A stretch of DNA of 64,000 nucleotides from the NCBI RefSeq assembly GCF_006385135.1, contig NZ_CP041025.1, forward strand, positions 1,085,501 to 1,149,500. The letters run 5' to 3'. The position numbers and the translations under genes are program-made. Positions 2,287 to 14,325 of this stretch are shown piece after piece. The first letter of the stretch is position 1. The number at the start of each line of letters is the position of its first letter. The DNA is from Paremcibacter congregatus. Lineage in GTDB: Bacteria; Pseudomonadota; Alphaproteobacteria; Sphingomonadales; Emcibacteraceae. The notes below the pieces were generated by a model. That model was not told where the DNA came from. It searched no databases and saw only the letters and a program-made list of their open reading frames with translations.

Positions 2287-2661
2287 ATGGAATTTTCTGA
2301 AGCTGTTAAATCGGTCTTTTCAAAGTTTGCAACATTTTCAGGCCGGGCAGCCCGGTCTGAATATTGGTACTTTCAGTTGTTTATCTTTCTGGTGCAGATT
2401 GCAATCACGATCCTGACGATGGTTGTCCCGTTTCTCGCGCTGCTTTCCTTGATCTTTGCTTTGATCACGATCCTGCCCGGACTGGCGGTATCTGTGAGAC
2501 GGTTGCATGACAAGAATAAATCGGGCTGGTGGTTGTTGCTGTGCTTCATTCCTCTGGTCGGGGCTATTATTCTGCTGATCTGGTTTGCAATGGCCGGTAC
2601 GGAAGGGCCCAATGAATATGGGGATGATCCTTTGGCTGATCCTGCCGAAGTCTTTGCATAA
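2287..2661 (+). CDS. DUF805 family inner-membrane protein
   Basis: A 124-residue membrane protein of the DUF805 family. It carries the family signature FSGRAARSEYWYFQLF followed by hydrophobic helices, the conserved VRRLHDKNKSGWW loop, a further helix pair (LLCFIPLVGAIILLIWF) and a polar tail ending near EGPNEYGDDPL. I chose ATG 2287 because it starts the conserved domain and follows an AAAAGGG ribosome-binding site; an in-frame extension upstream is AU-rich and unlike the family. The cellular role of the family is not known. It is monocistronic, with a GC hairpin and T tract directly downstream. Confidence 0.88.
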   Translation: MEFSEAVKSVFSKFATFSGRAARSEYWYFQLFIFLVQIAITILTMVVPFLALLSLIFALITILPGLAVSVRRLHDKNKSGWWLLLCFIPLVGAIILLIWFAMAGTEGPNEYGDDPLADPAEVFA

Positions 2662-2683
2662 GGATTCATACGAGGACATGAAA

Positions 2684-2710
2684 GGCGGCCCCGGGCGGGT
2701 CGTCTTTTTT
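2684..2710 (+). terminator. Terminator after the DUF805 gene
   Basis: An 8-bp GC-rich stem (2684-2691 with 2697-2704, two G-U pairs), a 5-base loop, then TTTTTT. It lies 22 bases after the stop codon and separates this gene from the leu leader region. Confidence 0.75.
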
Positions 2711-2794
2711 GTTTCTGCGCCGCAAAACCATTTTTTAGTTCACAGGCCATATAAAATTGTTTATAAGGCGGGAGAATTAAAATTTTACGCAAGA

Positions 2795-2932
2795 ATGAGC
2801 ATGATAAAAGCAACTATTACATCGTTGATTTTCTTGGCCTCAGCCCCTTTACCGGCGCTGCGGGGCTTGCTGCCGTCTGCACCACTTCTTCTCTCCCTTC
2901 TATCACTACTGGGTCGACTTAGCCGCCCCTGA
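2795..2932 (+). CDS. leuL: Leucine-rich leader peptide upstream of leuA
   Basis: A 45-codon ORF whose product has 14 leucines, ending ...LLLSLLSLLGRLSRP. It ends 113 bases before the leuA start and about 60 bases before a perfect hairpin with a U tract. This is the layout of a transcription-attenuation leader: ribosome stalling on Leu codons when charged leucyl-tRNA is scarce would favour read-through into leuA. An ATG at 2801 in the same frame is an alternative start, and neither has a strong ribosome-binding site (the best purine run, GGGAGAA, is about 20 bases upstream). The role is inferred from position and composition. Confidence 0.75.
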   Translation: MSMIKATITSLIFLASAPLPALRGLLPSAPLLLSLLSLLGRLSRP

Positions 2933-2949
2933 CGTCTTGTTATATTTAA

Positions 2950-3012
2950 AGCCATTCGATGGCGGACGTTTAGGGGAGAAAAATACAATTTCATTCCCCG
3001 CGGGGAATTTTT
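2950..3012 (+). promoter_or_regulatory. leuA attenuator (terminator and candidate antiterminator)
   Basis: The terminator is the perfect 16-base palindrome ATTCCCCGCGGGGAAT at 2993-3008 followed by TTTT to 3012. Upstream, GGGGA at 2973-2977 can pair with TCCCC at 2995-2999 and would then disrupt the terminator stem, making it the candidate antiterminator arm. A small hairpin GCCA-N5-TGGC lies at 2951-2963. Together with the leucine-rich leader this suggests classical attenuation; the alternative pairing was worked out by eye. Confidence 0.7.
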
Positions 3013-3045
3013 ATCCAATTCAGATTATATTTTAAGGCTACTACC

Positions 3046-4590
3046 ATGACCAATGATAAAAACAGGGTTATCATCTTTGACACGACTTTGCGTGACGGCG
3101 AGCAATCTCCGGGCTGTTCCATGACGTTGAATGAAAAACTCCGGGTGGCGGAAGCGCTGGAACATCTCGGTGTTGACGTGATTGAGGCGGGGTTTGCCAT
3201 TGCGTCAAATGGTGATTTTGATGCCATATCGCAGATTTCGCAATTACTGAAGAACACCAGCGTTTGTTCTCTGTCCCGCGCGTCTTTCAAAGATATCGAC
3301 CGGGCGGCGGAAGCCTTGAAAAAGGCCGTACGCCCCCGCATTCATACTTTTATTTCCACCAGTCCGTTGCATATGGAGCATAAGCTGCAAATGACTCCGG
3401 AGGAGGTGATCGGCCGCATTCATGACAGTGTGAGCTATGCCCGCAATCTTTGTGATGATGTGGAATGGTCCTGTGAAGATGGCACCCGCACGGAAGAGGA
3501 CTTCTTGTACCGGTCTATTGAGGTGGCGATCAAGGCCGGGGCGACGACCATCAATGTGCCGGATACAGTGGGTTACACCACACCGGATGAATATGAAATC
3601 ATGATGCGCAAGATCATCGAGAATGTGCCGAATTCCGACAAAGCGATTTTCTCGACCCATTGTCATAACGATCTGGGGCTGGCGGTGGCGAACTCCATCG
3701 CGGCGGTTCAGGGCGGCGCGCGTCAGGTTGAATGTACCATCAATGGCATCGGCGAGCGGGCCGGCAATGCGGCTTTGGAAGAGATTATCATGGCTTTCCG
3801 CACCCGTCAGGATGCTTTGCCTTATCATACAAATATCGTGACCGAGAATATCACCAAAACCTCGCGCCTGGTGTCTTCTGTGACGGGGTTGGAAGTACAG
3901 CATAACAAAGCGATTGTCGGCGCCAACGCCTTCGCCCATGAAAGCGGCATTCATCAGGATGGCATGCTGAAGAATGCCGAGACCTACGAGATCATGACCC
4001 CGGAATCTGTCGGCCTGAAGAAATCGGAACTGGTGATGGGAAAACATTCGGGCCGTCATGCTTTCAAGGAGAAACTGAAAGATCTGGGTTATGATCTTGG
4101 TGATAACGAATTCATGAGCGCCTTTACCCGTTTCAAGGATCTGGCGGACGTGAAAAAGACACTCTATGACGATGATATCATAGCCATTGTCGACGAAGAT
4201 AGACGCGATAATGAACATATGAAGCTGGAAAGCTGGTCCTTCATTTGTGACAGTTGGCAACCGAGCAGCGCCACCTTCGGGCTGCTGGTCGATGGTGAAA
4301 ATCTCACGGTGTCCAGCAAGGGTAACGGGCCAGTGGATGCGTCCTTCAAAGCGTTACGGACCCTGACAGATGGGGAGCCGCATCTGGAACTGTATCAGGT
4401 GCACGCGGTGACCCGTGGCACGGATGCCCAGGCGGAAGTTACCGTACGGCTGGAAGAAAATGGCAAGACGGTCAATGGCCACGGGGCCCATGTGGATACG
4501 TTGGTCGCCTCGGCCAAGGCCTATGTCAATGCGTTGAACAAGCTCAAGGTGAAACGCGCGAAAACCGCCCCGGAAGCGCTCACGCTATAG
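3046..4590 (+). CDS. leuA: 2-Isopropylmalate synthase
   Basis: A 514-residue 2-isopropylmalate synthase that condenses acetyl-CoA with 2-oxoisovalerate in the first committed step of leucine synthesis. The TIM-barrel catalytic domain opens with FDTTLRDGEQSPGCSM, binds metal through the HCHNDLGLAVANS block (HxH near residue 204) and contains GERAGNAALEE. Residues from about 390 to the end form the leucine-sensing regulatory domain (PVDASFKALR, VHGHGAHVDTLVAS-like motifs). The length is normal for the bacterial type with feedback control. Expression is probably controlled by the leader and attenuator upstream, giving leucine control at both the RNA and enzyme levels. Confidence 0.97.
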   Translation: MTNDKNRVIIFDTTLRDGEQSPGCSMTLNEKLRVAEALEHLGVDVIEAGFAIASNGDFDAISQISQLLKNTSVCSLSRASFKDIDRAAEALKKAVRPRIHTFISTSPLHMEHKLQMTPEEVIGRIHDSVSYARNLCDDVEWSCEDGTRTEEDFLYRSIEVAIKAGATTINVPDTVGYTTPDEYEIMMRKIIENVPNSDKAIFSTHCHNDLGLAVANSIAAVQGGARQVECTINGIGERAGNAALEEIIMAFRTRQDALPYHTNIVTENITKTSRLVSSVTGLEVQHNKAIVGANAFAHESGIHQDGMLKNAETYEIMTPESVGLKKSELVMGKHSGRHAFKEKLKDLGYDLGDNEFMSAFTRFKDLADVKKTLYDDDIIAIVDEDRRDNEHMKLESWSFICDSWQPSSATFGLLVDGENLTVSSKGNGPVDASFKALRTLTDGEPHLELYQVHAVTRGTDAQAEVTVRLEENGKTVNGHGAHVDTLVASAKAYVNALNKLKVKRAKTAPEALTL

Positions 4591-4620
4591 AGTCTATGGC
4601 GATTACCTCTCCTGAAATTA

Positions 4621-4657
4621 TGTAAAGAATTCTGACTAAGTGTCAGGGTTCTTTACA
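4621..4657 (+). repeat. 16-bp hairpin downstream of leuA without U tract
   Basis: TGTAAAGAATTCTGAC at 4621-4636 pairs over all 16 positions (two of them G-U) with 4642-4657, around a 5-base loop. No T run follows, so it is not a standard terminator. It may be an mRNA 3'-end stabiliser of leuA or part of the control region of the PEP-CTERM gene 160 bases further on. Confidence 0.55.
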
Positions 4658-4816
4658 GGTATCAACCACGTATACGGTACCATTTCATAAAATGTCGCAC
4701 GTTTCAGCCACTGGTACAAAAATTGCATATAATTTTGATTGGGTAACAAGTCAAATTTCAATTACATGCAAGATGAGGTTTTGTGTTTTTGCACAACATT
4801 AAATAGTGAGGGAAAA

Positions 4817-5644
4817 ATGTTTAAAAAAATTCTATTAATTAAGGCTGCTGTTTTGGTGATGACGAGTTTCACTTATTCTGCTGCGAACGCCACTTATATA
4901 GTGGGTGGTCCAACGGCAAATCTTCAAACCCAAAATGGGAGTTACCGCTGGGATGGGGGATCCTTTGTCACGGATTTCAGGAATGCTCTGGAAAATCCAA
5001 ATAATTTTGGCCCAACGGGCACTGTAAATACAACTGTCGATACAGTTGATGTTGATCTAAGTACAGGAAACATGTCCGGTTTAGACGGCTTTCTTGTTCC
5101 TTGGTGGAGTTCTGCCGAATCTGCAGCCTATGATCAGCGGATTGTCGATTTCTTTCTGGCGGGGGGGGATTTGTGGTTATTGCAGGATAGTTCTGGTCGT
5201 GACGGTGTTGGCGCATTGTTAGGCCTTCCAACGGTTGGCCAGACTGGCGCATTGCCGGTAAGTGGTACGCCGCTCTTATTCGATGGTCCTTTTGGTGTTG
5301 CGACGTCCGTCACTCAAGGGGGCGGTGAAGAGGGTTATCTGAGTACACAGGATGTGCTCGATCATTCAGGCACCGTTGCTGCCACAAATACGGCAGACCA
5401 GGTAATTGCAGCGGTCTGGGCACCGGGCCAATATGCAGCAGGGGCGGGATCGCTTATCGTCGTTGCTGATATTGATATGTTCACCACTCAGGCCGACTTC
5501 GACGCCATGAATGGTAATGCGATCTTTACATTGAACGCATTTGCCTTCCTCGCAACCTCGCAGGATGTTCCAGAGCCGGCTTCTTTGGCGCTATTGGGTT
5601 TTGGTTTGGTCAGTCTGGCCTTTGTTCGGAGACGTCGCTATTAG
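4817..5644 (+). CDS. PEP-CTERM sorting-domain protein, secreted
   Basis: A 275-residue secreted protein. The start ATG at 4817 follows GAGGG and gives a standard signal peptide (MFKKILLIKAAVLVMTSFTY, cleaved near ANA). The body is Gly/Asp-rich with no lysine-rich regions and no catalytic motif that I recognise; its WLLQDSSGRDGVGALLG stretch suggests a ThuA/glutamine-amidotransferase-like Rossmann layout but this is uncertain. The end is a textbook PEP-CTERM tail: VPEPASLALLGFGL, a hydrophobic helix and RRRR. Such proteins are recognised by an exosortase and exported in association with exopolysaccharide. No exosortase gene is in the window, so it must be elsewhere. Confidence 0.88.
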   Translation: MFKKILLIKAAVLVMTSFTYSAANATYIVGGPTANLQTQNGSYRWDGGSFVTDFRNALENPNNFGPTGTVNTTVDTVDVDLSTGNMSGLDGFLVPWWSSAESAAYDQRIVDFFLAGGDLWLLQDSSGRDGVGALLGLPTVGQTGALPVSGTPLLFDGPFGVATSVTQGGGEEGYLSTQDVLDHSGTVAATNTADQVIAAVWAPGQYAAGAGSLIVVADIDMFTTQADFDAMNGNAIFTLNAFAFLATSQDVPEPASLALLGFGLVSLAFVRRRRY

Positions 5645-5680
5645 GGCGGCTATTCGCGCGAGCAGCATCTAAATGTTACG

Positions 5681-5714
5681 AAAATGGCCCGATAAATTTT
5701 GGGCCATTTTTTTT
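5681..5714. terminator. Bidirectional terminator between converging genes
   Basis: A perfect 10-bp stem (AAAATGGCCC at 5681-5690 with 5701-5710), a 10-base loop and flanking T tracts on both strands. It serves both the PEP-CTERM gene and the minus-strand hydrolase that ends at 5713. Confidence 0.88.
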
Positions 5715-6489
5715 AGATTTTATCCACATGACTCCACTTGATTAACTTGTGATCAAAACCGGATTCGAGGGTGGGCTTAATAATCTTGAAATAGGGAGAC
5801 AGGTCGAAGTCTCGCGGCGTAAACAAACTATGATGCCGGATATGATAGATCTCCTGTAAGACAGACTTTGCCGGAGGTGTCTCGATACATTCTCGCGTAA
5901 TCTGCGGCAAAATGGGGTAGTTGACACTGTGAAAGGCTTCGGCAATCAGGGTTGAACATATGGCGCGGGTGGGGTCGCCACTGCCCATGGCCAGCATGCG
6001 TCGGCGGAAGAAGACAGGCACCGGTGGATAAGGAATGAGATAGCGGCCAAGGTCAATGATATTCTTCATGTCATACTGATGACCAATGCGGTTGCGGGTG
6101 TAGGCGATAACAGCGGCCTTTTCCGCCACAGACAGACTGGCGGGGCGGCATATCCGGGTATTGAAATGCCTGTATTTGTTTAAGGATACGCATTTGACGC
6201 CCCCGTCGGCCTCGGCTTCAATCAGGTCGAGGCTTTCGCTTGGCCCCTCATCAGCCGCATTCAGGTCGGGTCCAATATAGAGCGCCGCATGAGACCAGGT
6301 CGATTGGGTCAGATATTTTATGATGCTGCTGACCCTGAGATTACCTTCGACCAGCAGGACATCGCCGGGTTGGAGATGTTGTTCAAGAATTTCGGGGCTG
6401 GTGATGGAAAATGGTTCATATTTCCACACCGGCTTGCGCAGGTAAAGGATGATCAGATTAGATATTTTTTCACGCAACCACTGGAACAT
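5713..6489 (-). CDS. YiiX/YebB-like permuted papain-fold cysteine hydrolase
   Basis: A 258-residue protein of the permuted NlpC/P60-like (YiiX/YebB) superfamily. In order there is an N-terminal amphipathic stretch, LQPGDVLLVEG, the His box TWSHAALYIG, and a central RIGHQYDMKNIIDLG segment. The C-terminal nucleophile box is ICSTLIAEAFHSVNYP, with Cys after His as expected for the permuted fold. Members hydrolyse amide or ester bonds of cell-wall or lipid substrates; the substrate here is unknown. There is no clear signal peptide, although the first 20 residues (ISNLIILYLRKPVW) could contact membrane. It is divergent from mreB across 235 bases but need not be functionally linked. Confidence 0.78.
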   Translation of the reverse strand: MFQWLREKISNLIILYLRKPVWKYEPFSITSPEILEQHLQPGDVLLVEGNLRVSSIIKYLTQSTWSHAALYIGPDLNAADEGPSESLDLIEAEADGGVKCVSLNKYRHFNTRICRPASLSVAEKAAVIAYTRNRIGHQYDMKNIIDLGRYLIPYPPVPVFFRRRMLAMGSGDPTRAICSTLIAEAFHSVNYPILPQITRECIETPPAKSVLQEIYHIRHHSLFTPRDFDLSPYFKIIKPTLESGFDHKLIKWSHVDKI

Positions 6490-6724
6490 AATTTGCCCTT
6501 ATTTCTACGCTTAATGGACCCCGGGATGAAAAAGAGGCGGGGGGAACCGTCGCGTACTGCTATTTCTGTTCTGGAAACCATAAAATGGCATAAAAGGAGC
6601 CTCTTTATCCACAAAGAAATTGCAATCCAAACGGTATGTTAATACAAACGATGTATAAGCGGGCTGAATTAGGGTTAACGACTCTGAATAATAACGCATT
6701 AAGTTTTAAAATAGGCGAGCATAA

Positions 6725-7762
<1,038 letters not shown>

Positions 7763-7799
7763 ACCATATGAGCCCTGTGCGGTTAAATAGAGGTGTGTT

Positions 7800-8648
7800 A
7801 TGAAAGAAGTAAGGTACAGGTTCTCTACCGGCTTCTTCATTACCTTGTCTCTGGCCCTGTTGCTTTTTGGCAATAAGAACGCAACAGTTGTTCAGGAGGC
7901 GCGCTCGACCCTGATTGATGTGTTTGTGCCCGTTCTTGACGTGGTGTCGCGCCCGATTGAGGCGGTGGACAGTGCGTTTGGCTGGGTTCAGCAGGTGGCG
8001 ATCGTTTTTTCCGAAAATAAACGGTTGCGGGAAGAAAACGCCAAGCTAAAGAATGACCGCATCAAGGCGTCCCAGCTGGCGATTGACAATCAGCGCCTGA
8101 AAAAACTTCTCAATGTCGGCGAGGGACAGGTTAACACCATTGCCGCCGCCCGTGTGGTGGCCGACAGTGACAGCCCGTTCTTTAAAAGTGTCCTGATTAA
8201 CCGGGGCACCAGTGACGGTATCGCCAAAGGACAGGCCGTCATTACCGAAAACGGCATTGTCGGACGGACCATTACAGTGGGAAATTCCTCGGCCCGGGTA
8301 TTGTTGGCAACAGACATCAACAGCCGGATTCCGGTCAAATTGGCCTCGCGTGGGATCAATATGATTTTGGAAGGGGACAATTCGGCCTATCCTAAAGTCA
8401 CCTTTTTGCCGTTGGGCGAGGAAATTGCCGTCGGGGACCTGATTTTAACTTCTGGATATGGTATGGTTTTTCCACCAGACCTTCCGGTGGGGCAGGTGAT
8501 CGAGGTCGATGAGAAAGGGGTAAAGATCAAGCTGTCCGGTGAGCTGCACAATCTGAATTATGTCAGTATCGTCGGTTATGAGATTATCCGTAATCAATTG
8601 ACGCAGCCTGGCCGTGCAGGAACAGCCCTGCAGGAGGACCAGAACTGA
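7800..8648 (+). CDS. mreC: Rod-shape protein MreC
   Basis: A 282-residue bitopic protein that links MreB to PBP2 and RodA in the periplasm. It has a short cytoplasmic tail, one transmembrane helix (FITLSLALLLFGN), a periplasmic coiled coil (SENKRLREENAKLKNDRI to about residue 100) and the beta-barrel domains with VLINRGTSDGIAKGQAV and LTSGYGMVFPPDLPVG, both typical of MreC. The start follows a TAGAGGTG ribosome-binding site 37 bases after mreB. Its stop codon overlaps the mreD start by one base, indicating translational coupling. Confidence 0.96.
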   Translation: MKEVRYRFSTGFFITLSLALLLFGNKNATVVQEARSTLIDVFVPVLDVVSRPIEAVDSAFGWVQQVAIVFSENKRLREENAKLKNDRIKASQLAIDNQRLKKLLNVGEGQVNTIAAARVVADSDSPFFKSVLINRGTSDGIAKGQAVITENGIVGRTITVGNSSARVLLATDINSRIPVKLASRGINMILEGDNSAYPKVTFLPLGEEIAVGDLILTSGYGMVFPPDLPVGQVIEVDEKGVKIKLSGELHNLNYVSIVGYEIIRNQLTQPGRAGTALQEDQN

Positions 8649-9166
8649 TGGCGGTGGTACAGGAAAATAAATCCGAACGCGGCATGCGTGGCGTTATTCC
8701 TTTTGTCAGCACGCTGGTTCTGATCCTGCTGATGCAGCTTCAGTATAAAGTGGCGTTTATCGATACCATGTTTCCCAGCCTGTCGTTGATGGCGGTCTAT
8801 TACTGGTGTATTTACAAGCCGCAGCTGATGCCGGTTAGTGCGGTTTTCGTGCTGGGGCTGTTACAGGACATATTGTCCGGCGGCGCATTGGGCATGATGG
8901 CCTTGCTCCTGATCTTGGTGAGAGTCTTTATCGTTCGTCAGGGACCACGGCTTCTTGAGCGGGAATTTCTGTTCAGCTGGCTGGTATTTATCGTTGTCGG
9001 TCTGGTTTATGGCGCTCTCAGTTGGGCAATTGCCACGGTATACCTAAAGGAAAGTCAACATCTGGGGACCGCTTTCGGGCACAGTCTTCTGACCATAGCG
9101 GCGTATCCTCTGGTGGTGTTCCTTTTGAACCGGTTGCGTCAATTGTTGATCAGTGAAAGCAGGTGA
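8648..9166 (+). CDS. mreD: Rod-shape protein MreD
   Basis: A 172-residue polytopic inner-membrane protein with about five helices and a conserved GLLQDILSGGALGMMALLLIL segment, which identifies MreD. It works with MreC in the elongasome. The sequence is typically divergent, so the call rests on size, topology, this motif and its place between mreC and mrdA. The ATG overlaps the mreC stop (ATGA arrangement). Confidence 0.93.
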   Translation: MAVVQENKSERGMRGVIPFVSTLVLILLMQLQYKVAFIDTMFPSLSLMAVYYWCIYKPQLMPVSAVFVLGLLQDILSGGALGMMALLLILVRVFIVRQGPRLLEREFLFSWLVFIVVGLVYGALSWAIATVYLKESQHLGTAFGHSLLTIAAYPLVVFLLNRLRQLLISESR

Positions 9167-9171
9167 AATGA

Positions 9172-11001
9172 ATGGCGACCCCTGCCGATGACCTGAAATA
9201 TAAACTTTTTACCCGGCGGGCGAGTCTGCTTTCCGGGGGGATGCTGGTGCTGACCTCAGGATTGGTGGGGCGGCTGTATTATCTGCAGGTGGTTAATCAG
9301 AGCCAGTATAAGCTTCTTGCGGACAAAAACCGCATCAGTCTGCGTCTTCTGGCGCCGGAACGGGGAAAAATCCTGGACCGTAATGGCCTGGATCTGGCGA
9401 TTAACCGTACAGATTACCGGGTCAATCTTATCCCTGAACAGACCGAAAATGTAGAGCAAACTCTGGATGCGCTGAATGCAATCCTGCCCATTTCGGAACG
9501 TCAAAGAAAACGCATCCTGCGGGCGGTGAAACGCCAGCGCGGCTTTTTGCCGGTGATGGTGGCAGAAAATCTGGACTGGGACACATTCGCCCGGGTAAAC
9601 ATCAATATTCCCGACTTGCCCGGTATTCAGCCGGATATGGGGATCACACGGTATTATCCGGAAAAAGATCTTCTGGCTCACATTGTTGGCTATGTTGCCT
9701 CTGTCAATGAACGGGAGATCGGCGAAGATCCCCTGCTGGAACTGCCGGGATTTAAAATCGGCAAGAACGGGATGGAACGGGTTCTCGATCAGCGATTGCG
9801 GGGCAAGGCCGGCAACAGCAAGGTTGAAGTCAACGTGATGGGGCGGGTGATCCGGGAACTGAACCGCAATGACAGCCAGCCAGGCGATACCCTGCATCTG
9901 ACCATTGACCGGGACATTCAGAAATTTACCGCCGACCGGGTGCGGGACGAGAGTGCGGCGGTGGTGGTGATTGATGTACACAGCGGGGAATTGCTGGCCC
10001 TGACCTCGACGCCCGCTTATGATCCCAATGATTTTAATCTGGGCATCAGTCAGAAAAAATATGATGTTCTTCTGGGTGATGCCCGTAAGCCGTTGATCAA
10101 CAAGGCGGTGCAGGGGGTTTATCCACCGGGATCGACTTTCAAGATGATCGTGGCGTTGGCGGCTTTGGAAGCCGGGGTTATCGATAAGGATGAGACGATA
10201 TTCTGTAACAGCCGCTATAAAATCGGTAATACCGTAAAGCATTGCTGGAAACGTACTGGTCATGGCCATGTGAGCATGGTGGAAGCCATTGCCGGGTCCT
10301 GCGATGTATATTTCTATGAAATTGCCGGGCGGGTCGGTATTGACAAAATCCACGAGATGGCGGCGCGCTTCGGGTTAGGTCGAAAATTTGGTATTGATAT
10401 TCCCGGGGAAAAAGACGGCATTAACCCGTCCAAAGGATGGAAGATGGCGACCCGGGGGCAGCGCTGGCAGGGCGGCGACACGGCGAATGTGGGGATCGGG
10501 CAGGGGGCTGTCCTGGTGACGCCCCTGCAGCTTGCTGTTATGATCGCCCGGCTGGTTAACGGGGGGCGGGCGATTAAGCCGAGCATCCTGATTGCTGACA
10601 GGGAAGATAAACCTCAGGAGCCGGAAAAAATTCCGTTTAATCCGGCGAACATGAAAGTCATTCACGAAGGAATGATGGCCGTGGTCAATAAGCAGTTCGG
10701 AGTGGCCTTCGCGCAGCGGATACGGGAAGAAGGCATGTCTTACGGCGGCAAGACCGGGTCGGCGCAGGTGCGGCGTATTTCCAAGGCCGAACGGGACGTG
10801 CGGGTGCGAAAAAATGAAGAAAAGCCCTGGATCGAGAGGGATCATGCGCTTTTTGTCGGATATGGTCCACTGGAGAATCCCCGATATGCGGTGAGTGTTA
10901 TTGTGGAACATGGGGGCGGCGGCTCTTCCAAGGCGGCGCCAATTGCCAAAGACGTTCTGAAGTACATGTTTGAGCAGGACAAGGCGGAGGACAAAGCCTG
11001 A
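9172..11001 (+). CDS. mrdA: Penicillin-binding protein 2, elongasome transpeptidase
   Basis: A 609-residue monofunctional class B penicillin-binding protein that cross-links peptidoglycan along the side wall. After a short cytoplasmic segment and one transmembrane helix (LLSGGMLVLTSGLVGRLYYL) come the pedestal domain (RGKILDRNGLDLAIN, KNGMERVLDQRLRG) and the transpeptidase domain. The active-site motifs are SxxK in PPGSTFKMIVAL, SxD in GSCDVYFYEIA and KTG in YGGKTGSAQV. It starts 5 bases after mreD and overlaps rodA by one base. It is the probable target of mecillinam-type beta-lactams, by family knowledge. Confidence 0.97.
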   Translation: MATPADDLKYKLFTRRASLLSGGMLVLTSGLVGRLYYLQVVNQSQYKLLADKNRISLRLLAPERGKILDRNGLDLAINRTDYRVNLIPEQTENVEQTLDALNAILPISERQRKRILRAVKRQRGFLPVMVAENLDWDTFARVNINIPDLPGIQPDMGITRYYPEKDLLAHIVGYVASVNEREIGEDPLLELPGFKIGKNGMERVLDQRLRGKAGNSKVEVNVMGRVIRELNRNDSQPGDTLHLTIDRDIQKFTADRVRDESAAVVVIDVHSGELLALTSTPAYDPNDFNLGISQKKYDVLLGDARKPLINKAVQGVYPPGSTFKMIVALAALEAGVIDKDETIFCNSRYKIGNTVKHCWKRTGHGHVSMVEAIAGSCDVYFYEIAGRVGIDKIHEMAARFGLGRKFGIDIPGEKDGINPSKGWKMATRGQRWQGGDTANVGIGQGAVLVTPLQLAVMIARLVNGGRAIKPSILIADREDKPQEPEKIPFNPANMKVIHEGMMAVVNKQFGVAFAQRIREEGMSYGGKTGSAQVRRISKAERDVRVRKNEEKPWIERDHALFVGYGPLENPRYAVSVIVEHGGGGSSKAAPIAKDVLKYMFEQDKAEDKA

Positions 11002-12146
11002 TGGCCTTACAATTGCAGGGACGTCGACGGTCCAAATCTTTGCTCCAGAAAATTTCGGAACTGAATTTTCTGATGATCATTGTCGTGGTTCTAATTGCCT
11101 CTATCGGCTTCGGGCTGCTTTACTCGGTGTCCGGCGGCGCTGTTGATCCCTGGGCAAAAAAACAGGTGATCCGTTTTGTTATCGGCATGGCGGGTATGGT
11201 GGTGATTGCCTTGATCGACATTCGGGTGTGGATGTTTCTGGCCTATCCTTTTTATTTCCTGTCGCTGATGTTGCTGGTTATTGTGGATATTGCAGGGCAT
11301 ACCGGCATGGGGGCGACCCGATGGATTAATCTCGGGTTTATGAACCTGCAACCTTCGGAATTGATGAAAATCGCCCTGGTGCTGGCTCTGGCGCGGTATT
11401 TTCATTGCCTGGACAATGATCAGGTGGGTCGATACCGGCGGCTGGTGATGCCTCTTTTCCTGATTATGGCGCCGATTATTCTGGTGCTGCGCCAACCGGA
11501 CCTGGGCACCAGTATATTGATTGCTATTGGCGGCGTAGCCATACTGTTTGCTGCAGGGATAAGGATGTGGATATTTGTTGTTACGGGCCTGGCGTCCATT
11601 CCGGCGGCCTTCGGGGCCTGGCAATTTATGAAACCCTATCAGCAGAGCAGGGTGCTGACCTTTCTCAACCCGGAAAGAGATCCTTTGGGGGCGGGATATC
11701 ATAGTATTCAGGCCAAGATCGCGGTGGGCTCCGGCGGCGTGCATGGCAAAGGCTTCATTCAGGGAAGCCAGAGCCAGTTAAACTTTTTGCCGGAAAAACA
11801 TACGGATTTCATCTTTACGGTTCTTGCGGAAGAATTTGGTCTGATTGGTGGTTTGGGGCTGTTAGGTCTGTATCTGCTTTTGCTGGGGTATGCAGTGATC
11901 ATCAGTATGAGCGTCCGCAGCCAGTTTGGCCGGTTGCTGTCGCTTGGCATGGCGGTGACCTTTTTCCTCTATATGTTTATCAATGTGGCGATGAACCTCG
12001 GCATGTTGCCTGTGGTCGGTGTGCCGTTGCCGCTGGTGTCTTACGGCGGCTCTGCGATGTTGACATTGCTCGTAGGGATAGGGTTTGTTCTTTGCGTTGC
12101 CATCCACCGTGATACATCAATTTCACGAGGGGGTGCTTTTGCGTGA
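11001..12146 (+). CDS. rodA: SEDS peptidoglycan glycosyltransferase RodA
   Basis: A 381-residue SEDS-family polymerase that extends glycan strands together with PBP2. It has about ten transmembrane helices and the family blocks GATRWINLGFMNLQPSELMK, RQPDLGTSIL, the long loop GSQSQLNFLPEKHTDFIFTV with the conserved Glu/Asp region, and PLVSYGGSAMLTLLVGIG. It is the last gene of the mre operon, translationally coupled to mrdA. No strong terminator follows; a weak 5-bp hairpin lies at 12264-12277. Confidence 0.96.
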   Translation: MALQLQGRRRSKSLLQKISELNFLMIIVVVLIASIGFGLLYSVSGGAVDPWAKKQVIRFVIGMAGMVVIALIDIRVWMFLAYPFYFLSLMLLVIVDIAGHTGMGATRWINLGFMNLQPSELMKIALVLALARYFHCLDNDQVGRYRRLVMPLFLIMAPIILVLRQPDLGTSILIAIGGVAILFAAGIRMWIFVVTGLASIPAAFGAWQFMKPYQQSRVLTFLNPERDPLGAGYHSIQAKIAVGSGGVHGKGFIQGSQSQLNFLPEKHTDFIFTVLAEEFGLIGGLGLLGLYLLLLGYAVIISMSVRSQFGRLLSLGMAVTFFLYMFINVAMNLGMLPVVGVPLPLVSYGGSAMLTLLVGIGFVLCVAIHRDTSISRGGAFA

Positions 12147-12526: not shown

Positions 12527-12613
12527 TTATTTCAACTGACTATGGCGGAAACAATCTGTTGTGTGGTCATTAATAATGCCCACGGCCTGCATAAAGGCGT
12601 AACAGATGGTTGG
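12527..12613 (-). pseudogene. Displaced 3' fragment of tag
   Basis: Read on the minus strand this stretch encodes the last 24 shared codons of Tag (PTICYAFMQAV...DCFRH) and then SQLK and a stop, whereas the intact gene at 13747 ends KQLHI. The shared 73 bases differ at one position, a synonymous Ile codon. It is best read as the original tag 3' end, cut off when the AT-rich insert carrying the Fic-type gene entered. Confidence 0.85.
12541..12613. repeat. 73-bp direct repeat, left copy (putative attachment site)
   Basis: Identical to 13764-13836 in 72 of 73 bases (12572 A against 13795 G), same orientation, offset 1223. It lies at the left edge of the AT-rich insert and is derived from the 3' end of tag. 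Confidence 0.92.
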
Positions 12614-13763
12614 GCAGTGAGCTATGCGATATTTTGTACTTGTTTGTTTATTTTCTTTAATAGGTAATTTAATTTATATAGTGCAATGTGATTTTTTTAA
12701 GTTGTAGAATTAAATTCATTTGATGGCCGTAGGTGAATGGATAATCGTTAATATTATTCAAAATATTGAGCTTTGTAAATTTAGTTGGAAATGTATGATA
12801 GAAGAAGTTGATTTTGAATTAATAGAAAACGAAGAGGTTAAAAATGAATATGAGAGGTGTAAGAAGGGAATTGGTGAGGAGGATAAATACAAAGATGCAA
12901 AAAGACTTGGTATTCATGATGTTGTAAAAGCTCATTTTCTAATTGCTGATTATTTTTATTCTGCGGGAGAAGGTATGGGAGGTATTGGTCCTCGAGATAC
13001 TGATTTACTTAATTCTGCACTTTATAGGCAACATGTTTCATTAGCTGGGATATTAAAGTACAATGATTCATTGACTATATGTTCAACTCTATTTTACGGT
13101 TTAGTAAAGGATCACGTGTTTTATGATGGGAATAAAAGAACAGCTTTTACATGCTTAGTATATCACTTAATGCTCCATGGCTTATATCCAACACTTTCTC
13201 AAAAAGAGTTGGAAGACTTCACAGTTGATGTTGCAGATGGTGAATTTAAGAAAAAAAAACGATATATTGACTATTCGAAAAATTCAGATGACCCAGATAT
13301 TAAATATATTGCTCACTTTTTAAAAAAGAATACACGTAAGAAGGATACGAAGTCCTATTCTGTTACCTATAGGCAATTAAATAAAATACTGATGAAGTTT
13401 GGTTATGAATTGGAAAATGCTGGCGGGAACTACATTGATATTAGGCGCAAGGAGATACGAAGGAAGGCATTTAAAGCTTTTGGTATTGAAATTAAACAAG
13501 GGAAAGAAGAAAGCGTAAACATTAAAGTGTGCCAGATCGGTTTTCCAGGATGGACAAAAAAAGTAAATGATAGTGCCATTAATACTGTTAGAAAAGCTAC
13601 TAAGCTTGATCATAAGCATGGTATTGATTCGGCAGCGTTTTTCAAGAATCAAGATCCTATTAGGTGCATGATTTTGGATTATGCAGAACCTTTACACCGT
13701 CTAGCTTATAGATAAATATGACTAGGTGTACGTGGTAGTAATTTGATTAGATATGTAATTGCT
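12614..13763. mobile_element. Small AT-rich insert between tag-derived direct repeats
   Basis: A 1.15-kb segment bounded by the two 73-bp repeats. Its base composition differs visibly from the flanks: the line 13201-13260, for example, has 19 G/C of 60. It contains a single Fic/Doc-type gene and short AT-rich spacers. At the right junction it supplies a new end (KQLHI) for Tag, as site-specific integrative elements often do for a target gene. No integrase or transposase is present, so it is either a non-autonomous cassette, a remnant of a larger island, or the product of homologous exchange at tag. Confidence 0.75.
12720..13715 (+). CDS. Fic/Doc-family protein with HicA-like C-terminal domain
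   Basis: Up to 331 residues. A Fic/Doc domain covers about residues 60-165, with HDVVKAHFLIADYF, the GIGPRDTDLLNSAL block and the catalytic loop HVFYDGNKRTAF (His132). The loop matches the Doc form of the HxFx(D/E)GNxxR motif, so it could modify a protein target by AMP or phosphate transfer. From about 220, YRQLNKILMKFGYELENAGG and IGFPGWTKKVN resemble the HicA double-stranded-RNA-binding-like fold; this is a visual match. Start uncertain: TTG 12720, ATG 12723 or ATG 12795, none with a strong ribosome-binding site. AT-rich, with no separate antitoxin gene beside it. Confidence 0.75.
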   Translation: MMAVGEWIIVNIIQNIELCKFSWKCMIEEVDFELIENEEVKNEYERCKKGIGEEDKYKDAKRLGIHDVVKAHFLIADYFYSAGEGMGGIGPRDTDLLNSALYRQHVSLAGILKYNDSLTICSTLFYGLVKDHVFYDGNKRTAFTCLVYHLMLHGLYPTLSQKELEDFTVDVADGEFKKKKRYIDYSKNSDDPDIKYIAHFLKKNTRKKDTKSYSVTYRQLNKILMKFGYELENAGGNYIDIRRKEIRRKAFKAFGIEIKQGKEESVNIKVCQIGFPGWTKKVNDSAINTVRKATKLDHKHGIDSAAFFKNQDPIRCMILDYAEPLHRLAYR

Positions 13764-14325
13764 TATGGCGGAAACAATCTGTTGTGTGGTCATTGATAAT
13801 GCCCACGGCCTGCATAAAGGCGTAACAGATGGTTGGACCGCAAAAACCAAAGCCTTTTTTCTTGAGCGCTTTGCTCATGGCCTGTGACTCTGCCGTTTCG
13901 GCAGGAACGTCTGCCCCGGTCCGCCAGCTGTTCTGTACGGTCTTGTCGTCTGTGAAGCTCCAGATAAATTCCGAAAAGCCTCCGGGGTGCGCCTGCTCTA
14001 TTTCAAGATAGGCGCGGGCGTTTTTAATTGTAGCGAGAATTTTCATGCGGTTACGGATGATGCCCTTGTCCTGCATCAGCCGTTCGACGTCCTCGTCGTC
14101 ATAAGCGGCTATTTTCACCGGGTCAAACTGGTCAAAAGCCGTGATGAAAGTTTCGCGGCGCCGCAAAATGGTAATCCATGACAGCCCGGCCTGAAAGCCA
14201 TCCAGGATCAGTTTTTCAAACAGGGCGCGGGAATCTCTTATGGGAACGCCCCATTCCTCGTCGTGGTAGGCGACATAGAGCGGATCTTCCCCCGGCCATG
14301 TGCAGCGTGATTTTTGTTCGGTCAT
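13747..14325 (-). CDS. tag: DNA-3-methyladenine glycosylase I
   Basis: A 192-residue glycosylase that removes 3-methyladenine from alkylated DNA to start base-excision repair. The four zinc ligands of the family are present: Cys8 in CTWPG, His21 in AYHDEEWG, and His180 and Cys184 in NDHTTDCFRH. Also seen are FQAGLSWITILRRRE and the catalytic-region KGFGFCGPTICYAFMQAVG. The last five codons (KQLHI) come from the AT-rich insert at its left, after the 73-bp repeat, yet all zinc ligands are kept, so it should still be active. The start is one base away from the ygfZ stop upstream; the two are probably co-transcribed. Confidence 0.95.
   Translation of the reverse strand: MTEQKSRCTWPGEDPLYVAYHDEEWGVPIRDSRALFEKLILDGFQAGLSWITILRRRETFITAFDQFDPVKIAAYDDEDVERLMQDKGIIRNRMKILATIKNARAYLEIEQAHPGGFSEFIWSFTDDKTVQNSWRTGADVPAETAESQAMSKALKKKGFGFCGPTICYAFMQAVGIINDHTTDCFRHKQLHI
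13764..13836. repeat. 73-bp direct repeat, right copy (inside tag)
   Basis: This is the partner of 12541-12613 and forms codons for the last shared part of Tag up to His187, including the zinc ligands His180 and Cys184. The single difference between copies is a silent Ile codon change (ATC here, ATT on the left). Confidence 0.92.

What the first reader, a model, noticed from the sequence alone, without database searches (positions are those of the whole stretch)
12527..13836. Fic/Doc-type gene inserted in the 3' end of tag with a 73-bp direct repeat
Seen: 12541-12613 and 13764-13836 match in 72 of 73 bases and are derived from the end of the tag coding sequence. Between them is a markedly AT-rich 1.15-kb segment with one gene, a Fic/Doc domain (HVFYDGNKRT) followed by a HicA-like domain. 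The intact Tag uses five codons from the insert as its new end, while the old end (SQLK stop) is stranded on the left. The repeat codes for zinc ligands His180 and Cys184, so Tag survives. Inference: a non-autonomous cassette or a remnant integrative element using tag as its attachment site. The one repeat difference is a silent Ile codon, as expected if the insert brought a homologous tag end from another strain.
Basis: partly seen in the sequence, partly recalled or inferred. Interest (0 to 1): 0.75.

Follow-up and report, generated by a model that had tools for sequence, protein, structure and literature searches.

The report
Foreign toxin-like gene tucked behind tag
A foreign, phage-type toxin-like gene has landed in the very end of a DNA-repair gene together with a 73-base copy of that end, so the repair gene stays whole; two relatives of this gene in other bacteria show the same kind of scar in two other genes, which suggests a way for single genes to move without the usual jumping-gene machinery.

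Summary
The gene encodes a Doc-type Fic domain plus a degenerate HicA-like domain; no antitoxin gene or recombinase was found. The insert is absent from 9 of 9 same-genus loci that hold both rodA and tag. New here: of 14 chromosomal copies of this Doc-HicA-like family, 3 sit between 60-73-bp direct copies of a host-gene 3' region, in three unrelated genes (tag 72/73; DUF2238 60/60; GDPD about 93%), against 0 of 206 other ORFs in a 464-kb control from one genome. None of 18 loci in phages, satellites or plasmids shows it. This fits 'insertion with long target duplication', described for restriction-modification genes, better than a tag-specific integrative element. The route is not settled: illegitimate recombination, a recombinase acting in trans and Campbell-type integration remain open, and a phage contig that appears to use the tag 3' end as attachment site keeps that rival alive. 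Likely function (inferred): single-gene phage defence.

The parts
13747..14325 (-). tag (3-methyladenine DNA glycosylase I), intact, 192 aa; last five codons and stop come from the insert
   Evidence: PF03352 E 1.5e-80, TIGR00624 E 1.1e-78
13764..13836 (-). repeat copy that belongs to intact tag (codes PTICYAFMQAVGIINDHTTDCFRH)
12541..12613 (-). second copy of the tag 3' region, cut off from tag by the insert
   Evidence: 72/73 identical to 13764-13836
12527..12540 (-). probable old tag end (SQLK and stop), stranded
   Evidence: reads CFRHSQLK-stop; 8 of 11 same-genus ends contain AEL at this place; its position on the rodA side and the normal rodA gap fit the native end, the DNA of the tail itself does not decide
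12614..13763 (.). insert, 1,150 bp, 32% G+C, one gene
12795..13715 (+). solitary Doc-HicA-like gene (306 aa from ATG 12795; ORF open from TTG 12720)
   Evidence: PF02661 E 4.7e-9, TIGR01550 E 4.1e-14; start by alignment with relatives
12897..13337 (+). Doc-type Fic domain (residues 35-181), motif HVFYDGNKRT at 13113-13142
   Evidence: structure match to P1 Doc 3dd7, Z 13.5, rmsd 2.3, 121 aligned
13350..13631 (+). HicA-like domain (residues 186-279); the family's C-terminal domain has no invariant histidine
   Evidence: 1whz Z 6.3, rmsd 2.8, 69 aligned; top five rows for a relative's domain folded alone are 1whz and four HicA chains; alignment
11001..12146 (+). rodA, convergent neighbour of tag; marks the empty site in relatives
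   Evidence: PF01098 E 5.1e-95; synteny

Best explanation
A single horizontally acquired gene, encoding a Doc-type Fic domain joined to a degenerate HicA-like domain, was inserted in the 3' end of tag together with a 73-bp duplication of the target. It is a case of the known but mechanistically unexplained pattern 'insertion with long target duplication'. SHOWN: the architecture; the intact Tag frame with its last residues differing from the stranded end; absence of the insert in relatives; no recombinase ORF, no terminal inverted repeats of 14 bp or more, no antitoxin-like ORF beside the gene; the same kind of scar around relatives of the gene in two other target genes. INFERRED: insertion is recombinase-free, most simply by homology-facilitated illegitimate recombination or repair of a break with the ends far apart, and only insertions that keep the target gene working are seen. 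INFERRED: the direct repeats allow RecA-dependent precise loss, amplification, and re-entry of an excised circle at tag of another strain. INFERRED: the protein is a single-gene anti-phage or addiction toxin in which the Doc domain modifies a host target (EF-Tu for P1 Doc, recalled) and the HicA-like domain senses or restrains.
For: Repeats and insert. Relatives: distance between aligned ends of rodA and tag 309-373 bp in 9 of 9 same-genus loci that hold both genes, against about 1.6 kb in the window (about 390 bp to the stranded end). Same scar elsewhere: 60/60 bp around the Doc-HicA-like gene of a Kordiimonas MAG, from the 3' end of a DUF2238 gene; 67 bp at 93% in a Magnetococcales MAG, from the 3' region of a GDPD gene. 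In all 3 of 14 chromosomal copies, against 0 of 206 other ORFs with a comparable repeat (two scored 52-60 and read as duplicated terminator-like hairpins); rough binomial P 4e-5. Foreign: G+C of the gene is at least 7 points below its flanks in 11 of 14. Cargo role: P4-like satellites between psu and int in E. coli (3 of 8 partial-match records inspected, all with the same protein), a position described as an anti-phage hotspot (PMC9122126, passages seen); filamentous-phage records; what reads like a P2-like tail operon. Precedent: restriction-modification units insert with target duplications of the order of 100 bp (PMC3874152, PMC1643837, passages seen).
Against: Eleven of 14 chromosomal copies have no such repeat; in the one examined closely the gene lies directly behind an intact cobS-like end, so the scar is not obligatory. 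The GDPD case is untidy: the intact gene has a natural-looking tail (VIFEGFxP, as in 4 of 8 homologues), so about 46 bp of native-looking sequence lies between repeat and insert, and the stranded copy runs into another repeated sequence. In the window the stranded tail, which should be the native one, is by DNA no closer to relatives' tails than random insert sequence is (7 of 12 bases, P 0.35), while the new tail is closer (9 of 12, P 0.024); this leans to a tail carried by the insert. Relatives are too diverged to read the empty site base by base. No excision, circle or movement was observed. No phage-defence test was made or found.
Confidence: 0.55

Rival explanations
1. Attachment-site remnant or trans-mobilised mini-element: the 73-bp repeats are attL and attR of a tyrosine- or serine-integrase element that targets the tag 3' end and carried its own tag end; the integrase was lost or acts from elsewhere (like a CIME, recalled).
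For: A 10.2-kb phage contig with a serine-integrase-like ORF begins inside a tag 3' end and ends with a second tag-like 3' end, so tag is probably used this way by at least one phage. Gene-restoring 3'-end repeats of this length are typical of integrases (recalled). The family is cargo next to int in P4-like satellites. The new tail resembles one natural tag end in 9 of 12 bases, empirical P 0.024.
Against: No integrase ORF in the insert, which has room for one gene only. Three unrelated target genes would each need their own attP and each element would have to shrink to the same single gene with only 23-181 bp to spare on a side. The exact tag repeat was not found in the viral collection.
Confidence: 0.25
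2. Campbell-type entry: a circle made of the gene plus 73 bp of tag, excised in another strain, recombined by RecA with the resident tag.
For: One silent difference between the copies could be a strain difference; 73 bp is above the 30 bp that PMC2884548 gives as reported threshold for RecA recombination in E. coli (passage seen).
Against: Explains re-entry at tag, not the first capture of a tag end, nor the different targets of relatives. Identity drops abruptly at both repeat ends.
Confidence: 0.12
3. Chance or assembly artefact: unrelated repeat and gene, or a misassembly.
For: The genome is one contig whose reads were not available, so misassembly cannot be checked here.
Against: The same architecture is seen around relatives of the gene in two other genomes; the new Tag end and the stranded end are both coherent; flank alignment 141 against a shuffle maximum of 26.
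Confidence: 0.03

Closest known systems
Insertion with long target duplication of restriction-modification genes (Nobusato 2000, known here only from citing papers PMC1643837 and PMC3874152, passages seen)
   Same: Addiction-type gene inserted without a recombinase between long direct copies of the target (of the order of 100 bp, variable)
   Different: Cargo is a solitary Doc-HicA-like gene; the three duplications are all 3' regions of genes and 60-73 bp long
Homology-facilitated illegitimate recombination and stranded 3' ends in V. cholerae T6SS immunity arrays (PMC5361080, passages seen)
   Same: A new module enters at the 3' part of a gene and pushes the old 3' end downstream
   Different: There the new end is a homologous module of the same locus; here an unrelated gene is added and the resident gene is kept
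P1 Doc (Phd-Doc)
   Same: Fold and HxFx(D/N)(G/A)NKR motif
   Different: No Phd-like partner gene found; extra HicA-like C-terminal domain
P4-satellite psu-int cargo (PMC9122126, passages seen)
   Same: Members of this family occupy that position
   Different: In the window the gene stands alone in a chromosome, outside any satellite

Membership tests
Insertion with long target duplication | Long, variable direct copies of the target flank the insert | tested here: met
   73 bp, 72/73; relatives 60/60 and 67 bp at 93%
Insertion with long target duplication | No recombinase in the insert | tested here: met
   Only one gene-sized ORF in 1,150 bp
Insertion with long target duplication | Close relative with one target copy and no insert, joined base-exactly | tested here: inconclusive
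   No insert in 9 of 9 same-genus loci with both rodA and tag, but Tag is only 68-74% identical in same-genus genomes, so junctions cannot be aligned exactly
Integrative element at tag | Integrase within the element | tested here: not met
   No integrase-sized second ORF; the one gene is Fic/Doc
Integrative element at tag | Direct repeats in a gene 3' end that restore the gene | tested here: met
   Tag intact, 192 aa
Integrative element at tag | Circular form with attP | not testable with these tools
   No reads or DNA
IS or transposon | Terminal inverted repeats and transposase | tested here: not met
   No inverted-repeat pair of 14 bp or more at the insert ends (shorter ones not tested); no transposase ORF
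Doc toxins | Doc-type Fic fold and motif | tested here: met
   TIGR01550 E 4.1e-14; Z 13.5 to 3dd7; family profile match to 9vzc E 1.2e-14 and 3k33 E 7.6e-7; H, F, N, K, R of the motif invariant in 14 sequences
Doc toxins | Operon with a Phd-like antitoxin gene | tested here: not met
   No ORF of 40 aa or more lies wholly between the left repeat and the start codon; a 41-aa ORF begins in the repeat (antisense to tag) and a 44-aa ORF is antisense across the gene start; shorter ORFs were not examined
HicA | HicA fold | tested here: inconclusive
   Top five rows are 1whz and four HicA chains, Z 5.3-6.3, next row 4.1; all under Z 8; Pfam HicA only for one relative at E 0.026, below its cut-off; no HicA hit by sequence profile
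HicA | Catalytic histidine (recalled) | tested here: not met
   No invariant His in the C-terminal domain of 13 members
Anti-phage defence system | Protection against phage shown | not tested
   Only context and partial PADLOC PDC-S23 matches around the Fic core, best E 8.8e-7

The most novel reading that the evidence does not exclude
Doc-HicA-like genes are a family of single-gene mobile units that enter the 3' ends of unrelated genes by a dedicated, undescribed process that duplicates 60-73 bp of target and so leaves the target gene functional; the same units also jump as cargo into phages and satellites.
Probability: 0.15. Interest if true: 0.85.

Novelty: new variant of a known kind. Interest (0 to 1): 0.52.

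Why it matters
Defence and toxin genes often appear as lone genes in chromosomes with no visible means of transport. A recurrent scar, gene plus long copy of the target's 3' region, in three hosts and three targets would give a molecular signature for recombinase-free movement of such genes, extend a pattern known from restriction-modification genes to a Doc-type gene, and show how insertions inside conserved genes can be harmless. The long repeats also make gain, loss and amplification testable.

Tried and rejected
Transposon or IS: no terminal inverted repeats of 14 bp or more and no transposase ORF. tRNA-type attachment: ARAGORN finds no tRNA in the window. Second copy of the insert in the genome: none (one match only). 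Other inserts of this kind in the genome: a sample of 20 stretches of 20 kb (400 kb of 4.19 Mb) plus the window gave no second case. Four of the 20 stretches do hold direct repeats of 40 bp or more within 8 kb (L091, L092, L097, L101): L092 is a pair of exbD-like paralogues; L091, L097 and L101 were not examined further and look like internal or tandem repeats from their spacing. L089 and L105 (about 30-bp repeats) read as duplicated terminator-like hairpins. Occupied tag sites in relatives: L040 has a longer rodA-tag gap because of an ordinary MFS-like ORF, without a long repeat. Tail test: the new tag tail matches its best natural tail among 27 in 9 of 12 bases (P 0.024), the stranded tail 7 of 12 (P 0.35); too weak to decide. 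Close relatives by single-protein scan: none in genome contigs or viral contigs. HicA by sequence: not found in the PDB profile search. No print record of a Doc-HicA-like family or of such scars around Doc genes was seen in the listings of searches (listings only; a find in PMC10865869 for Doc, Fic and Fido gave nothing); Furuta 2010 is not held and Nobusato 2000 was not opened. Searches served for the hotspot, tag-attachment and nomadic-gene questions; two gave nothing that I used.

Rows dropped before counting: L069 and L073 (same loci as L062 and L003) and further repeat fetches of loci already counted; L075-L077 (match only part of the Fic domain; in L075 and L076 the flank script matched itself). 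The Fic-only hits (L004-L023) were not examined for repeats. 'No repeat' for the 11 chromosomal copies means no long flanking repeat and no flank alignment above the shuffle maximum; L070, L071 and L064 come near it (30 against 31, 28 against 29, 25 against 29), and the right flank of L072 is cut at 543 bp. Among the 18 mobile-element loci several are near-duplicates (L065-L067 share one protein; L080-L082 are nearly alike) and some flanks are short (L087 has about 100 bp on the right). The control ORFs come from six frames, so 206 overstates the number of real genes, and the control is one genome while the cases come from several; the binomial P is rough. The class 'chromosomal' rests on my reading of neighbouring ORFs, not on annotation; L071 and L072 may lie in islands and L126 lies near a resolvase-like ORF.

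Full report
1. Observation. The two repeats lie exactly where stated: 12541-12613 and 13764-13836, 72 of 73 bases identical, and they are the only direct repeat of 40 bp or more reported in the window. Aligning the 700-bp flanks of the gene gives a score of 141 against a maximum of 26 in 60 shuffles. The insert between them is 1,150 bp with 32% G+C; the flanks have 52%. Tag is intact (192 aa; TIGR00624 E 1.1e-78) and ends CFRH-KQLHI, the last five codons being from the insert. The stranded copy continues CFRH-SQLK-stop. Of the 15 other genomes of the genus, 11 gave a tag locus; 5 of the 11 ends contain CFRHAELK and 8 of 11 contain AEL. So the stranded end looks like a natural Tag end, and it lies on the rodA side as the native end should; but at the DNA level neither tail is decisive (section 7). 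His180 and Cys184 are in the repeat; their zinc role is recalled.

2. Empty site. rodA and tag are convergent neighbours. In the 9 same-genus loci that hold both genes, the distance between the aligned ends is 309-373 bp (9 of 9); in the window it is about 390 bp to the stranded end and 1.6 kb to the real end. One locus of another genus of the family (L040) has a longer gap filled by an ordinary MFS-like ORF, without a long repeat. The relatives are too diverged (Tag 68-74% identical within the genus) to align the junction base by base.

3. The gene. By alignment with relatives the start is ATG 12795, 306 aa. It matches Fic PF02661 (E 4.7e-9), the Doc subfamily TIGR01550 (E 4.1e-14) and PHROG Doc-like toxin (E 3.6e-19). 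A structure predicted from 14 family members (mean pLDDT 76, pTM 0.65) matches P1 Doc over residues 35-181 (Z 13.5, rmsd 2.3, 121 aligned) and, over residues 186-279, the chain 1whz (Z 6.3, rmsd 2.8, 69 aligned), with HicA chains lower (5yrz Z 4.9, 6g26 Z 4.8). The C-terminal domain of the Magnetococcales member folded alone has as its five best rows 1whz and four HicA chains from HicAB complexes (Z 5.3-6.3, next row 4.1). These Z values are below 8 and no HicA hit came by sequence profile, so the HicA relation is likely but not proven. No histidine is invariant in that domain in 13 sequences, whereas HicA nucleases need one (recalled). No antitoxin-like ORF of 40 aa or more lies wholly between repeat and gene.

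4. Relatives of the gene. The family is sparse: at strict thresholds, own genome included, 2 of 385 genomes of the class, 5 of 398 of the phylum and 6 of 376 of the order. I examined 14 chromosomal copies. Three are flanked by long direct copies of a host gene's 3' region: the window (tag); a Kordiimonas MAG of the same family, protein 30% identical (60 of 60 bp, DUF2238 gene, whose last codons differ from the stranded ones; named); and a Magnetococcales MAG (67 bp at 93%, GDPD gene; named). Eleven have none: they lie next to tolA/tolB-like genes, behind prlC-like, purT-like, cobS-like and thiC-like genes, between ndk-like and purN-like genes, and elsewhere (names from reading the ORFs, not from searches). 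Two copies hold in-frame stops (L054, L127). In the cobS-like case the native end is intact and the gene starts 37 bp behind it. In 11 of 14 the gene is at least 7 points poorer in G+C than its flanks.

5. Controls. Of 207 ORFs of 240-466 aa in the window and in a 400-kb sample of the same genome, only the window's gene has flanking repeats scoring above 60; two others scored 52 and 60, and both read as duplicated terminator-like hairpins of about 30 bp. The three cases score 110-141. Taking 1/206 as an upper base rate, 3 or more of 14 has P about 4e-5, and 2 or more of the other 13 about 0.002; this is rough because the genomes differ and the ORFs come from six frames.

6. Mobile contexts. 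Members occur in a Vibrio filamentous phage record and a 7.9-kb Salmonella record with filamentous-phage genes, in an E. coli chromosome beside filamentous-phage genes (1 of 5 full-length records inspected), in P4-like satellites between psu and int (3 of 8 partial-match records inspected), in a conjugative Klebsiella plasmid, in ten IMG/VR contigs whose neighbours I did not read and in what reads like a P2-like tail operon. None of these 18 loci has comparable flanking repeats; several are near-duplicates. The psu-int position is a described hotspot of anti-phage systems (PMC9122126, passages seen), so a defence role is the best guess; it was not tested.

7. How it got there. The pattern is that of 'insertion with long target duplication', noted for restriction-modification genes (PMC1643837 and PMC3874152, passages seen; the original paper was not read). 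I know of no established mechanism for it. Homology-facilitated illegitimate recombination, proposed for T6SS immunity arrays with shifted 3' ends (PMC5361080, passages seen), is one route. Long direct repeats allow amplification by unequal crossing-over, as stated for restriction-modification units (PMC3031569, passages seen). Against a simple duplication stands the Magnetococcales case: the intact GDPD tail looks natural (VIFEGFxP, as in 4 of 8 homologues), so about 46 bp of native-looking sequence lies between repeat and insert there, and a 57-bp sequence next to the stranded copy recurs upstream of GDPD. In the window the new tail KQLHI resembles the tag end of the Kordiimonas MAG (9 of 12 bases, P 0.024) more than the stranded tail resembles any of 27 relatives (7 of 12, P 0.35); that leans towards a tag end carried in by the insert but is too weak to decide.

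8. The attachment-site rival. A degenerate tag motif in the viral collection hit two contigs. One, L140, is a phage contig with a serine-integrase-like ORF (read from the ORF list, no family search); it begins inside a tag 3' end and its last 130 bases hold a second tag-like 3' end, as expected for an element that integrates in tag and carries its own tag end. The exact window repeat is not in that collection. So tag ends can probably serve as attachment sites, and a remnant or trans-mobilised element remains possible (0.25). It has to explain three unrelated targets and inserts with only 23-181 bp beyond the gene on a side.

9. Verdict. I file it as a new variant of a known kind: a Doc-HicA-like gene inserted with long target duplication, with recurrence in two other genomes as the main new fact.

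Noticed in passing
L140 (IMGVR_UViG_3300036861_001015), 1-183 and about 10100-10180: Phage contig with a serine-integrase-like ORF whose two ends are tag 3' ends: the tag end appears to be its attachment site.
   Followed up: partly
L141 (IMGVR_UViG_3300005573_001595), 2461-9039: An intact tag gene in a contig of the viral collection, with neighbours that read like a DNA methyltransferase, endonucleases and a Vsr-like gene.
   Followed up: no
L062, 1323-1379 and 3181-3237: A 57-bp sequence (98% identical copies) flanks the whole GDPD plus Doc-HicA-like region, outside the 67-bp repeat.
   Followed up: no
L077 (Daviesbacteria MAG), 3590-3616 and 4380-4406: A 26/27-bp direct repeat around a Fic-domain match that is not of the fused family.
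   Followed up: no
L142, 4001-4891: A Doc-HicA-like gene of 45% G+C inserted alone in what reads like the tail-gene operon (65-66% G+C) of a P2-like prophage.
   Followed up: partly
L101, 3189-7823: Long tandem array with 861-bp period in the same genome as the window.
   Followed up: no
L127 and L054: Doc-HicA-like genes with in-frame stops, in genomes of the same order and class: probable decaying copies.
   Followed up: no
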